A model generated the notes under the pieces. The model saw only the letters and a list, made by a program, of their open reading frames with translations, was not told the origin of the DNA and did not search any database. A stretch of DNA of 58,955 nucleotides. It comes from Pseudomonadota bacterium. GTDB taxonomy: Bacteria > Desulfobacterota > Desulfobulbia > Desulfobulbales > JAGXFP01. The translations under genes were made by a program, and so were the position numbers. Location of the stretch: assembly GCA_018814305.1 (NCBI GenBank), contig JAHJAA010000090.1:1-58955 (forward strand). The letters run 5' to 3'. This document shows positions 601 through 3,929 of this stretch, one piece after another (within the stretch, counting starts at the first letter, position 1; every line of letters begins with the position of its first letter).

Positions 601-687
601 CAATTAGTTAGCGTGGCCCGACCCCAGCGCAAGTTTTAGACAACCATTGCAAATGATTTCAGTTAGTTAGCTTGGTCCGACCCCAGC
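601..687. repeat. Two tandem REP-like repeats (GGYCCGACCCCAGC)
   Basis: Two direct copies of a unit with core TGGCCCGACCCCAGC (614-628) and TTGGTCCGACCCCAGC (672-687) sit about 59 bp apart; each is preceded by a TTAGTTAGC tract. The same core recurs at 1446-1462, inverted at 2584-2599, and in short form at 48830-48842. The pattern resembles dispersed REP sequences rather than gene-specific sites. The bases between 361 and 697 otherwise show no gene. Confidence 0.6.
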
Positions 688-697
688 TTTTAACTCC

Positions 698-976
698 TTA
701 AACAACAGCAAGTTTACAGCCAAGGGCTTTTGTTACTTTGCTGATTGTGGAGAATTTAGGATTGCTGTCTTCGGCAAGGGACTTGTAAAGGCTTGCGCGG
801 GTAACGCCGGCTTTTTTTGCCACCTCAGACATGCCCATTGCTCTAGCAGCAGTATTCAAGGCATGGATAAAGTCGGATTCGTCGCCGGTGGCAGCGACCT
901 CTTGCAGAAAATCACGGATCTCTTCTGGGGTATTCAGATGTTCTGAGATGTCAAAAGGTTGTGTTTTAAGGGTCAT
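698..976 (-). CDS. HigA-like antidote (HI1420-type) of a type II toxin-antitoxin pair
   Basis: A 92-residue protein that ends with a helix-turn-helix of the XRE type: residues about 45-90 include AKKAGVTRASLYKSL and a C-terminal ALG segment. The opening FDISEHLNTPEEIRDFLQEV and the overall length match the addiction-module antidote family first noted downstream of HI1419 in Haemophilus. It would neutralise the toxin encoded directly upstream (3-bp gap, same strand) and repress their shared promoter. Toxin-first gene order is usual for this family. Both genes appear intact. Confidence 0.88.
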   Translation of the reverse strand: MTLKTQPFDISEHLNTPEEIRDFLQEVAATGDESDFIHALNTAARAMGMSEVAKKAGVTRASLYKSLAEDSNPKFSTISKVTKALGCKLAVV

Positions 977-979
977 GTT

Positions 980-1279
980 TCAATCCTCTAGTTCTTCCAA
1001 AAGCTCGTTAGCCTTTGCAATGTTTTTGGCTTGGGTAGACTTGTTTCCTCCAGCCAAAAGTAAGACAACTTTATCATTCTGGGTGGTGAAGTAAATTCGC
1101 AGACCGGCGCCAAATATGAAACGCAACTCAAATAGGTTGGATCCGATTTGTTTAAAATCTCCGAAGTTGCCGTTCTCAACTCGGTTGAGACGGGCCAAGA
1201 CCCTTATCCTTGTAAAAGAGTCTTTAAGTTTGACAAACCATTTGTCGTATTCTTTTGTGCTTCGGAGTTCGTATTTCAT
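980..1279 (-). CDS. RelE/HigB-superfamily toxin (HI1419-type)
   Basis: A 99-residue basic protein with the family pattern: NGNFGDFKQIG, then FELRFIFGAGLRIYF and LLLAGGNKSTQ. These are hallmarks of the addiction-module killer family within the RelE/ParE fold, whose members cleave mRNA on or off the ribosome. The start ATG lies just downstream of a clear promoter with an embedded palindrome. It precedes the antidote gene by 3 bp, giving a compact operon. No frameshift or truncation is visible. Confidence 0.88.
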   Translation of the reverse strand: MKYELRSTKEYDKWFVKLKDSFTRIRVLARLNRVENGNFGDFKQIGSNLFELRFIFGAGLRIYFTTQNDKVVLLLAGGNKSTQAKNIAKANELLEELED

Positions 1280-1314: not shown

Positions 1315-1529
1315 GTATAGCCGTGGGGAGTAAAAGTATTTTTGACGGGATAAATTACAAATTTAGTATTATTGGGAATGGCGAAGAGCCCATTGAATTA
1401 GGCGCATGTTTTATGGTTGTTACTTAAGTAATTCCAGCTACTTGTCGTGGCCCGACCCCAGCGGGACCCCGCCGCCCCTACGCTGATCAACGCCAAAACA
1501 CCCATTTGTCAAGCCTGATAATCATATAA

Positions 1530-1611
1530 AAGGCACCTCTCTCAGTCAGTCAGAGACCAACCTCTGATAGACTGAGAGGAAAGAGACCAATCTTTCAAGA
1601 GGAGGTGCCTT
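1530..1611 (+). ncRNA. Structured leader of the IS110 transposase; candidate bridge RNA segment
   Basis: This 82-nt stretch folds as a three-way structure by eye. An outer 10-bp stem pairs 1530-1539 with 1602-1611. Inside are one hairpin of 9 bp (1539-1547 with 1570-1578) topped by 6 bp (1550-1555 with 1562-1567), and another of 5 bp (1580-1584 with 1591-1595). Both loops carry ACCAA, within two copies of GAGACCAA (1553-1560, 1583-1590). The outer stem contains the ribosome binding site and abuts the ATG at 1612. In the IS110 group a bridge RNA is encoded between the left end and the transposase gene; this is the right place for it, but the assignment is inference. A translational attenuator is the alternative. 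Confidence 0.5.
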
Positions 1612-2607
1612 ATGCAATTATACGCGGGAATCGATTTACATTCAAACAACAGTTACTTGGCAATCAGTGATGAAGAAGATAATCGTCATTACAAGAAGCG
1701 CCTCCCCAATCAAGCAGATGTTATCCTAGCAGAACTGGAAACCTATCGGAATGATTTAGTGGGAATCGTGGTTGAGTCCACATTTAACTGGTATTGGCTG
1801 GTGGATACCTTGATGGACAACGGATATGAAGTTCATCTGGCGAATCCGGCCGGGATGCAGAAGGACAAGGGCTTAAAACACAGCGATGACACTCATGACG
1901 CTTTCTGGCTGGCCCGTCTTCTGCGTCTCGGGATTCTTGCCGAGGGATACATTTATCCCAAGGAGTGGCGGCCGGTACGGGATCTGCTCCGCAAACGGGG
2001 GCATCTGGTACGATTGCGGACCTCTCTGATAAAAAGTCTCCAGGGGATTATCAGCCGCAACTGCGGACATAGTCTGCCTGGAAAAAAGATCAAACAGGTG
2101 AAAGTAAATCATATCACCCCATTGCTGGCATCCCAGGAAGATCTGGCCATGAGCGGAGCGATAAGCAAGGATTGCATTGACTATCTTTCAAAGAAGATCA
2201 GGGAGATTGAGGTAGCCGTGGAAGGCAGAGTGGAAATACGCAAGCAGTTCGCCGGGCTGCAGACGGTACCCGGCATCGGCAAGATTCTCTCGTTGGCTAT
2301 CATGTTGGAAACTGGTGACATCGGCCGTTTTGTCAAGGTTGGCAACTTTTCCTCTTATTGCCGTAAGGTGCCGACCACCTGGACGAGCAACGGCAAGAAA
2401 AAGGGTAAAGGTAACAGTAAAAATGGCAACAGGTATCTGGCATGGGCCTTCTCCGAGGCGGCAGAGTTTTTCCGACGCTATGATGAGTCCGCCAGGGCTT
2501 TCTATAACAGGAAGGCCGCGAAAACCAATTTCATGGTTGCCCACACTGATGACTCGCTTCTTTTTAGTCATGCCTCTAAGCCATTGGGGTCGGACCAAGC
2601 CAAGTAG
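1612..2607 (+). CDS. IS110-family transposase, C-terminus altered
   Basis: A 331-residue DEDD recombinase. The RuvC-like N-terminal domain shows D8 in YAGIDLHS, E55 in VVESTF and D93/D96 in SDDTHDAFWLA; the C-terminal Transposase_20-type region starts near LQTVPGIGKILSLAIM and contains the Ser/Gly/Lys-rich GKKKGKGNSKNGNRYL segment. After residues KTNFMVAH the sequence departs from what the family usually carries and ends in codons made from a REP-like repeat, so roughly the last 20-30 residues seem replaced. The start is preceded by AGAGGAGG, which is sequestered in a stem. Activity is doubtful because of the tail. Confidence 0.85.
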   Translation: MQLYAGIDLHSNNSYLAISDEEDNRHYKKRLPNQADVILAELETYRNDLVGIVVESTFNWYWLVDTLMDNGYEVHLANPAGMQKDKGLKHSDDTHDAFWLARLLRLGILAEGYIYPKEWRPVRDLLRKRGHLVRLRTSLIKSLQGIISRNCGHSLPGKKIKQVKVNHITPLLASQEDLAMSGAISKDCIDYLSKKIREIEVAVEGRVEIRKQFAGLQTVPGIGKILSLAIMLETGDIGRFVKVGNFSSYCRKVPTTWTSNGKKKGKGNSKNGNRYLAWAFSEAAEFFRRYDESARAFYNRKAAKTNFMVAHTDDSLLFSHASKPLGSDQAK

Positions 2608-2891: not shown

Positions 2892-3929
2892 TCAAGCCTT
2901 GCCCCCCTCGCTTTTATCCTCGATCTGCCGGGCTAACTGCTCAAAATCTTCTATATCAGATTTTTGTGACTCAAGTTGCAAGCGGTTTGTATGGAAACGA
3001 TCATACTCTGTTTCTGCCAAGTCCTTTGCTATTTGATGGGAAATTGTTCCGGCATGCGCCAGAATGTCGCGGTCATTCAGGTTTAAAAAACCGTCCAACT
3101 TGGCGAGCCAGTCACCCATGTGCATGGGAATATGGCGCATAGCCTGCCCCTCGGCAAAGACTAGGTATTGCTCAACCAGATTGTTTAAAGCCAGGAGTTC
3201 TTCTTCGTTTAAATAATTCTTGGCAACCGCCACATCCTGTTTACGCACCTTGGGGCCGCGCCAACTGGTCAGACCCATGTTAGGCTTGCTGTGATTGGCC
3301 CGGTCGTGGATGATCTCGGCGGCGGTCTGGCCGGTTATGGCCCAATGCATCTTGTTCTGCACGGTCTTGAAAAAATTGATGCTGATGTCGAGGGTCGGGT
3401 CATAGTCGATGGAGGTTGCGTAAATATCAGTGATCTTCCGGTAGAACCGCTTTTCAGAGGTCCGAATGTCCTGAATGCGGCGCAGCAGTTCGTCAAAATA
3501 ATCGAAGGGCTGATCCGGGTTTTTTAGCCGTTCATCATCCAGGACAAAGCCCTTGACGATAAACTCCTTGATATGGCGAGTGGCCCATTGCCGGAAGCTG
3601 GTGGCGACATGGCTTTTGATCCGGTAGCCCACCGAAATGATGGCGTCCAGATTGTAGAATTTCTTTGTCCGCTTGACCTGGCGGCCCCCTTCGATTTGAA
3701 CTTGTAAGGATTCCTTACAAGTTGACTCTTCCGCCAGTTCCCCTTCCGCATAGATGTTCTTCAGGTGCATGGTGATGTTCTGAGGTTTGACTTGGAACAA
3801 CTCCGCCAGGTGCGCCTGGGTCAGCCAGACGGTTTCATCCTGAAGCTGGACCTCGATTTTGGTCTGGCCATCCTCTGGCTGATAGATCAGTATCCGAGAA
3901 GTTGTTTGCAGCCCCTTTTCTTTGCTCAT
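2892..3929 (-). CDS. RhuM family protein
   Basis: A 345-residue protein matching the RhuM (virulence protein) family throughout: an N-terminal winged-helix-like part with VWLTQAHLAELFQVKPQNITMH, then YNLDAIISVGYRIKSHVATSFRQWAT, and a C-terminal FYRKITDIYATSIDYDP region. RhuM was named from Salmonella pathogenicity island 3; its biochemical role is not established, and homologues are commonly found next to type I restriction genes. That holds here: its ATG overlaps the stop codon of an hsdR-like tail as ATGA. It therefore probably once belonged to a restriction-modification operon now deleted upstream. The length is full. Confidence 0.85.
   Translation of the reverse strand: MSKEKGLQTTSRILIYQPEDGQTKIEVQLQDETVWLTQAHLAELFQVKPQNITMHLKNIYAEGELAEESTCKESLQVQIEGGRQVKRTKKFYNLDAIISVGYRIKSHVATSFRQWATRHIKEFIVKGFVLDDERLKNPDQPFDYFDELLRRIQDIRTSEKRFYRKITDIYATSIDYDPTLDISINFFKTVQNKMHWAITGQTAAEIIHDRANHSKPNMGLTSWRGPKVRKQDVAVAKNYLNEEELLALNNLVEQYLVFAEGQAMRHIPMHMGDWLAKLDGFLNLNDRDILAHAGTISHQIAKDLAETEYDRFHTNRLQLESQKSDIEDFEQLARQIEDKSEGGKA

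What the first reader, a model, noticed from the sequence alone, without database searches (positions are those of the whole stretch)
1461..1612. Folded leader before an IS110 transposase: candidate bridge RNA that also hides the ribosome binding site
Seen: an outer 10-bp stem (1530-1539/1602-1611) closes two hairpins whose loops share ACCAA inside repeated GAGACCAA, and the outer stem covers the Shine-Dalgarno directly before the ATG. Known: IS110-family recombinases use a bridge RNA encoded in the non-coding end beside the transposase, with loops that read target and donor DNA. Inference: this leader is part of that RNA and doubles as a translational switch. The loops here look small for classical guide loops, so guide segments may lie further upstream (1461-1529).
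Basis: partly seen in the sequence, partly recalled or inferred. Interest (0 to 1): 0.65.

Follow-up and report, generated by a model that had tools for sequence, protein, structure and literature searches.

The report
Transposase leader that hides its RBS
The folded stretch in front of this broken IS1111-type transposase gene is not the element's guide RNA, which in relatives lies at the other end and is lost here, but a leader that pairs with the ribosome binding site and so should keep transposase production low, a feature kept by paired changes in dozens of related mobile elements.

Summary
The structure is real. A 10-bp stem, 1530-1539/1602-1611, closes two hairpins and covers the Shine-Dalgarno before ATG 1612 (z -7.1, no shuffle of 200 as stable).

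It is not the bridge RNA. The gene is an IS1111-group transposase. In intact relatives the guide RNA lies 3' of the gene: a covarying hairpin (9 of 18 pairs with double changes) whose loop copies the left insertion flank (3.85 of 5 bases; 20,000 permutations never above 2.76). The 5' leader shows no such match. The window copy is cut at about 2548 and has lost its last ~28 codons, the 3' RNA and the right end, so it is a relic.

The second half of the reading, RBS hiding, is supported. In 60 distinct relatives from several phyla the 5' arm fits its own RBS arm far better than other elements' arms (21.8 vs at most 17.1 in 20,000 permutations). The stem usually begins at the predicted start of the circle-junction transcript (TTGAC-N17/18-GATAAT).

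A lead: a minus-strand promoter-like site inside tnp codons 2-12, with unusual codon conservation, resembles the antisense promoter of ISPpu9. It is unproven. Precedents (ISPpu9, IS10, IS200) make this a new variant of a known kind.

The parts
1502..1515 (+). Left flank (CCATTTGTCAAGCC), the left half of the insertion target; TCAAGCCTGACCC is a repeated site in this genome
   Evidence: 17 exact copies of TCAAGCCTGACCC in the genome; relatives are inserted between the left half + TGA and CCCC
1516..1525 (+). Left end of the element, TGATAATCAT (TGA is shared between target and both element ends)
   Evidence: Where identity starts or ends between multi-copy elements in Alishewanella and Psychromonas; conserved in nearly all leaders
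1517..1522 (+). -10 half (GATAAT) of the circle-junction promoter; the -35 half (TTGAC) sits in the right end, missing here
   Evidence: Rejoined ends of 25 intact relatives give TTGACN-17/18-GATAAT (or GAAAAT); one of the 25, L033, is mis-indexed
1524..1534 (+). Left copy of the subterminal inverted repeat (ATATAAAAGGC; right copy in relatives GCCTTTTAAT)
   Evidence: Read from the ends of L003, L005, L013
1530..1539 (+). 5' arm of the outer stem (anti-SD arm); predicted +1 of the junction transcript is about 1529
   Evidence: helix usually starts +8/+9 after the -10 hexamer in relatives
1540..1577 (+). Inner hairpin 1, loop ACCAAC 1556-1561
   Evidence: loop sequence not conserved (L013, L097)
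1579..1596 (+). Inner hairpin 2, loop GACCAA 1585-1590
   Evidence: ACCAA loop kept in several close relatives only
1602..1611 (+). 3' arm of the outer stem, covering most of the SD (GGAGG 1601-1605) up to the base before the ATG
1612..2607 (+). IS1111-group DEDD transposase, 3'-truncated: homology ends at about 2548, then 19 foreign codons
   Evidence: PF01548 and PF02371; relatives continue about 28 codons
1617..1645 (-). Candidate antisense promoter: -35 TTGAAT 1645-1640, 17-nt spacer, -10 TATAAT 1622-1617; would start at about 1610
   Evidence: codon conservation at these bases; inferred, no transcript data

Best explanation
Window 1516-2548 is the 5' remnant of an IS1111-group insertion sequence (IS110 family in the wide sense). 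Its 96-nt left end carries the left subterminal repeat, the -10 half of the promoter formed when the element circularises, and an mRNA leader whose first bases pair with the Shine-Dalgarno. The leader is a built-in translational brake. Both junction-driven and read-through transcripts carry the complete stem, so ribosomes rarely start and little transposase is made, while the same transcript can still supply the 3' guide RNA. Shown by sequence: the stem, its covariation in relatives, the 3' guide RNA and its match to the insertion site, and the loss of that RNA here. Inferred: that the stem lowers translation in these elements (shown by experiment only in ISPpu9), where the transcript starts, and what opens the stem. 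In this window the leader is intact but the element cannot move by itself.
For: Fold z -7.1. Native 5'-arm/RBS-arm duplexes average -20.9 kcal/mol against -14.2 for swapped arms, best of 10,000 permutations -16.7 (36 leaders). A second test, which picks arms only by distance from the -10 and by the SD, gives 21.8 against at most 17.1 in 20,000 permutations (60 leaders); examples GAGTTCCTC/GAGGAACTC, CAGTCCCTC/GAGGGACTG, AAGCTCCTCG/CGAGGAGCTT, CAGCCTCC/GGAGGCTG. Leaders from other genomes, found afterwards, fold the same way (L103, L105, L106). Guide RNA on the 3' side: covarying hairpin; loop matches left flank 3.85/5 vs 1.95, permutation maximum 2.76; reverse complement of right flank p 0.002, with L010/L011 as natural retargeting (flank CACAGGGG, RNA CCCCTGTG). 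Junction promoter in 24-25 intact copies. ISPpu9: mutations that weaken the 5'-UTR structure raised translation 26-fold (PMC8450116).
Against: No expression data for this group. Among the window's closest relatives the outer stem is nearly invariant, so covariation comes from the wider group (only 1 of 8 pairs with a double change). The swap tests do not model the relatedness of the elements. A few leaders fit poorly (L022, L036, L059, L068). Internal mismatches of the outer stem are A.C far more often than G.U (22 vs 2), which pure selection on the sense RNA would not predict. IS4321 of R751 shows a weak version only (z -1.3).
Confidence: 0.85

Rival explanations
1. The leader is (part of) the bridge/seek RNA, its loops reading donor and target DNA, and it also hides the RBS.
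For: In IS110-group elements the bridge RNA is upstream of the gene (PMC11208160); the fold is strong.
Against: This is an IS1111-group element with a 96-nt left end. The guide RNA is 3' in relatives and tracks their insertion sites. Leader loops do not: left flank p 0.25, its reverse complement p 0.83; loop sequences change freely. One of four leader tests, right flank in sense, gave p 0.026, in the orientation that a guide would not use.
Confidence: 0.04
2. Two-faced leader: an antisense RNA is made from a promoter inside tnp codons 2-12, starts at the base of the stem, and pairs with the leader to open (as Asr9 of ISPpu9) or block (as in IS10, IS200) translation. It would act on top of the brake, not instead of it.
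For: Minus-strand TTGAAT-17-TATAAT at 1645-1617. In 45 non-redundant relatives the -35 codons are unusually fixed: His CAT 38/44 vs 169/336 elsewhere (p 3e-6), Ser TCA 25/41 of TCN vs 83/396 (p 2e-7); codon 2 ends in A in 37/44 vs 19% background. Codon identity ratio 1.24 in residues 1-12 vs 0.97-1.14 elsewhere. ISPpu9 has Pasr9 in the same place.
Against: A permuted-motif control was borderline: 5 of 120 permuted motifs did at least as well. Codon 2 bias is common after start codons. Sense and antisense leaders are equally stable against shuffles. No leader/3'-RNA complementarity like Asr9/Ssr9 (p 0.20 and 0.40).
Confidence: 0.38
3. The paired arms are a DNA-level inverted repeat (transposase or host-protein site) and RBS overlap is accidental.
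For: The 5' arm overlaps the subterminal repeat in the window's clade.
Against: In other clades the arm and the subterminal repeat are separate (L075); the 3' arm ends just before the start codon, whatever its sequence; in intact copies the matching repeat is in the right end.
Confidence: 0.06

Closest known systems
IS1111-group insertion sequences (ISEc11, ISPa11, ISKpn4, IS4321) with 3' seekRNA/bridge RNA
   Same: DEDD + Transposase_20 protein, short left end, subterminal inverted repeats, junction promoter, 3' guide RNA in intact relatives, insertion into a repeated palindromic site
   Different: This copy lacks the 3' guide RNA and right end; the RBS-hiding leader is not mentioned in the seekRNA paper passages read here
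ISPpu9 of Pseudomonas putida KT2440 (PMC8450116)
   Same: 5'-UTR structure buries the tnp RBS; antisense promoter within the first tnp codons; element sits in REPs
   Different: 5'-UTR 244 nt against about 80 nt here; own tnp promoter within the left end; Asr9/Ssr9 are detected RNAs with mutual complementarity, not found here
IS10, IS200, IS30 translational control
   Same: transposase translation held low by RNA structure and/or antisense RNA (as reviewed in PMC8450116)
   Different: unrelated transposases; here the predicted sense start lies at the base of the stem, so the junction transcript also carries the full block
IS621 bridge RNA (IS110 group)
   Same: non-coding structured RNA upstream of a DEDD recombinase
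   Different: about 177 nt (from memory) with guide loops; the leader here shows no guide function

Membership tests
IS1111 group of the IS110 family | DEDD N-terminal and Transposase_20 C-terminal domains | tested here: met
   PF01548 5e-14, PF02371 1.2e-14
IS1111 group of the IS110 family | Subterminal inverted repeats, about 7 bp and 3 bp from the ends | tested here: inconclusive
   Left copy present; right end lost in the window. Relatives: ATATAAAAGGC / GCCTTTTAAT
IS1111 group of the IS110 family | Long non-coding region with guide RNA 3' of tnp | tested here: not met
   Absent from this truncated copy (no contig 68 match); present with guide-target matching in the relatives. The copy is filed as a broken remnant of the group on protein and left end, not as a complete member
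IS1111 group of the IS110 family | Promoter formed at the circle junction | tested here: inconclusive
   -10 half present at 1517-1522; -35 half lost here; whole promoter in intact relatives
Bridge RNA / seekRNA | Loop segments that match left and right target sequence | tested here: not met
   Leader vs flanks: p 0.25, 0.83, 0.99; 0.026 for the wrong orientation
Bridge RNA / seekRNA | Bound by the transposase | not testable with these tools
   needs pull-down or binding assay
RBS-sequestering leader (ISPpu9-like) | Structure pairs with the tnp RBS and is conserved as a structure | tested here: met
RBS-sequestering leader (ISPpu9-like) | Weakening the structure raises translation | not testable with these tools
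   needs reporter fusions; shown only for ISPpu9
RBS-sequestering leader (ISPpu9-like) | Antisense RNA to the leader from a promoter in tnp | tested here: inconclusive
   promoter-like site and codon conservation against a borderline motif control
RBS-sequestering leader (ISPpu9-like) | 3' RNA complementary to the antisense RNA (Ssr9-like sponge) | tested here: not met
   native vs swapped p 0.40

The most novel reading that the evidence does not exclude
IS1111-group elements share a two-promoter control box: the circle-junction promoter and a promoter buried in the first 12 codons of tnp face each other across one 80-nt structured leader, each starting at one base of the RBS-hiding stem, so that sense leader and a fully overlapping antisense RNA set transposase output across several phyla.
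Probability: 0.35. Interest if true: 0.6.

Novelty: new variant of a known kind. Interest (0 to 1): 0.42.

Why it matters
RNA-guided IS110/IS1111 recombinases are being developed as DNA-editing tools, yet among the papers found here only one member (ISPpu9) has been studied for how the natural element limits its own transposase. A covarying RBS-hiding leader in dozens of IS1111-group elements suggests a general brake placed on the same transcript that carries the guide RNA. It also shows that a structured 5' leader next to such a gene should not be taken for the bridge RNA.

Tried and rejected
Leader as guide RNA: flank matching negative. Leader pairing with the 3' guide RNA: no native excess, though this test cannot see a match that is invariant in all elements. 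Strand bias as proof of antisense selection: outer-stem mismatches are A.C 22 vs G.U 2, but inner hairpins show none (8 vs 7), shuffled antisense leaders are also more stable than shuffled sense ones, and sense/antisense fold z-scores are equal, so it is left unexplained. Pairwise counts on the close-relative alignment A1 alone are uninformative because the arm hardly varies there. Flank search over the whole 330-nt 3' region gave no signal (p 0.68); the signal appears in the first 85 nt and in the fixed loop position. Rfam: no hit at the locus. ISEc11 from CP053751 could not be fetched, and the ISEc11 junction-promoter and IS1111-attC papers are not held.

Full report
A perfect 10-bp stem (1530-1539/1602-1611) encloses two hairpins; the 3' arm includes most of the Shine-Dalgarno and ends at the base before ATG 1612. 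The fold is far beyond chance: z -7.1 for 1525-1615 and no shuffle of 200 as stable. GAGACCAA occurs exactly twice on the + strand of the window, at 1553 and 1583, but this repeat is not kept in relatives: hairpin 1 has a different loop in L013 and in a second leader of the same genome (contig 18, L097).

What the element is. ORF 1612-2607 has the IS110-family domains PF01548 and PF02371. A scan of genome contigs gave 80 relatives at 44-76% identity. Comparison of copies in different places fixes the ends: left end TGATAATCAT, right end ...TTGAC-N17/18-ATGGG with TGA shared, inserted into a repeated palindromic site of the type GACCTGA/CCCC. Left and right ends carry a subterminal inverted repeat (ATATAAAAGGC / GCCTTTTAAT), the hallmark of the IS1111 group according to PMC11187229. 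The left flank TCAAGCCTGA belongs to a site with 17 exact copies of TCAAGCCTGACCC in the genome.

The copy is a relic. Homology stops at about 2548; relatives continue for about 28 codons and then 300 or more non-coding bases. The lost 3' part has no match on this contig but survives as fragments elsewhere in the genome (contigs 57, 74, 6, 69). No full-length transposase is found elsewhere in the assembly, which is in 92 contigs.

Where the guide RNA is. In intact relatives the first 75 nt after tnp form a hairpin with 9 of 18 pairs showing compensatory double changes; paired cells are 93% against 85% in shuffles and 27-46% when slid, and the covariation score is 0.347 against 0.180. The five bases before TGATT in its loop match the five bases left of the element's insertion point at 3.85 of 5 on average, against 1.95 for swapped elements and a maximum of 2.76 in 20,000 permutations. 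The reverse complement of the right flank is also found there (p 0.002). L010 and L011, which sit in a different site (...TATCC or TATGC / TGACACAGGGG), carry TATTC or TATGC and CCCCTGTG in the loop: natural retargeting. This is what was published for IS1111 elements (PMC11187229; PMC11208160 predicts a bridge RNA in 93% of them, in the right end). The 5' leader shows no such matching: left flank p 0.25, its reverse complement p 0.83, right flank reverse complement p 0.99; right flank in sense p 0.026 is one of several tests and in the wrong orientation. So the leader is not the bridge RNA.

What the leader does. In 36 non-redundant leaders the 5' arm binds its own RBS arm with -20.9 kcal/mol on average against -14.2 when arms are swapped, beyond all of 10,000 permutations. 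With arms chosen only by distance from the -10 and by the SD, 60 leaders give 21.8 against at most 17.1 in 20,000 permutations. The arms change together between lineages (GAGTTCCTC/GAGGAACTC in L015, AAGCTCCTCG/CGAGGAGCTT in L029, CAGTCCCTC/GAGGGACTG in L032, CAGCCTCC/GGAGGCTG in L046, AGCGGCT/AGCCGCT in L081). Leaders found later in other genomes fold the same way (L103, L105, L106), and some much more distant IS110-family leaders on plasmids (about 30% identity) also bury their RBS (Alteromonas L116, Sphingobium L119, Rhodococcus L120), though those cases were tested singly, with shuffled-upstream p values of 0.003, 0.07 and 0.15.

Position relative to transcription. When the ends of 25 relatives are joined as in the circle they give TTGACN-17/18-GATAAT or GAAAAT (one of them, L033, was mis-indexed by the script). 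The helix most often starts 8-9 bases after the -10 hexamer, that is at the predicted first bases of the junction transcript. The junction transcript would thus carry the whole block, as would read-through transcripts, so this is a standing brake and not merely protection against outside transcription. That reading is inference; the start site has not been mapped here. The nearest experiment is in ISPpu9, where weakening the RBS-burying 5'-UTR structure raised translation 26-fold (PMC8450116).

A lead worth following. The window has a minus-strand promoter-like site TTGAAT-17-TATAAT at 1645-1617, which would start an RNA at about 1610, at the other base of the stem. In 45 non-redundant relatives the codons under its -35 are unusually fixed (His CAT 38/44 vs 169/336 elsewhere; Ser TCA 25/41 of TCN vs 83/396) and codon 2, whose last base is the final T of the -10, ends in A in 37/44. 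Codon identity is raised in residues 1-12 only (ratio 1.24, elsewhere 0.97-1.14). ISPpu9 has its activating antisense promoter in the same place. Against it: the motif-permutation control is borderline (5 of 120 permuted motifs did at least as well), codon-2 bias is common, and no Ssr9-like complementarity was found. I put it at about 0.38.

Verdict. Observation confirmed; interpretation half right. The leader is a covarying RBS-hiding element of IS1111-group insertion sequences, here on a dead copy. Translational braking of transposases by leader structure is known, so this is a new variant of a known kind; the breadth, the junction-start geometry and the possible antisense promoter are what a specialist might find new.

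Noticed in passing
window 613-629, 671-688, 1445-1462 (+) and 2583-2600 (-): Short palindromic-unit-like repeats (TTAG/CTTGGTCCGACCCC, GTGGCCCGACCCCAGC), one directly upstream of the element and one inverted copy just after its break point; near copies also on other contigs.
   Followed up: partly
window 698-1279 (-): Two-gene unit that looks like a toxin-antitoxin pair: Gp49-like (PF05973) followed by a dnstrm_HI1420 antidote-type HTH protein (PF21716).
   Followed up: no
window 2892-3929 (-): RhuM-family protein (PF13310, E 2.5e-112).
   Followed up: no
L098 (genome contig 6, locus about 1300-1050, minus strand): Mini-element of about 250 bp with the left end (TGATAATCATCTAAAA) and right end (CTCTTGACAAGGGCCTTTTAATGG) of this group but no transposase: a MITE-like derivative.
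   Followed up: partly
L095 (genome contig 57): Orphan right ends without transposase, two in 2 kb, one of them with the 3' guide-RNA region.
   Followed up: partly
L017, L019, L020 upstream of tnp: About 100 nt inserted between the left end and the RBS-hiding stem, itself containing a long inverted repeat (CTCGTCAAGCGTGACATTT...GACGAGTT).
   Followed up: no
outer stems of 61 leaders: Internal mismatches are A.C 22 times and G.U twice; inner hairpins show no such bias. Not explained.
   Followed up: partly
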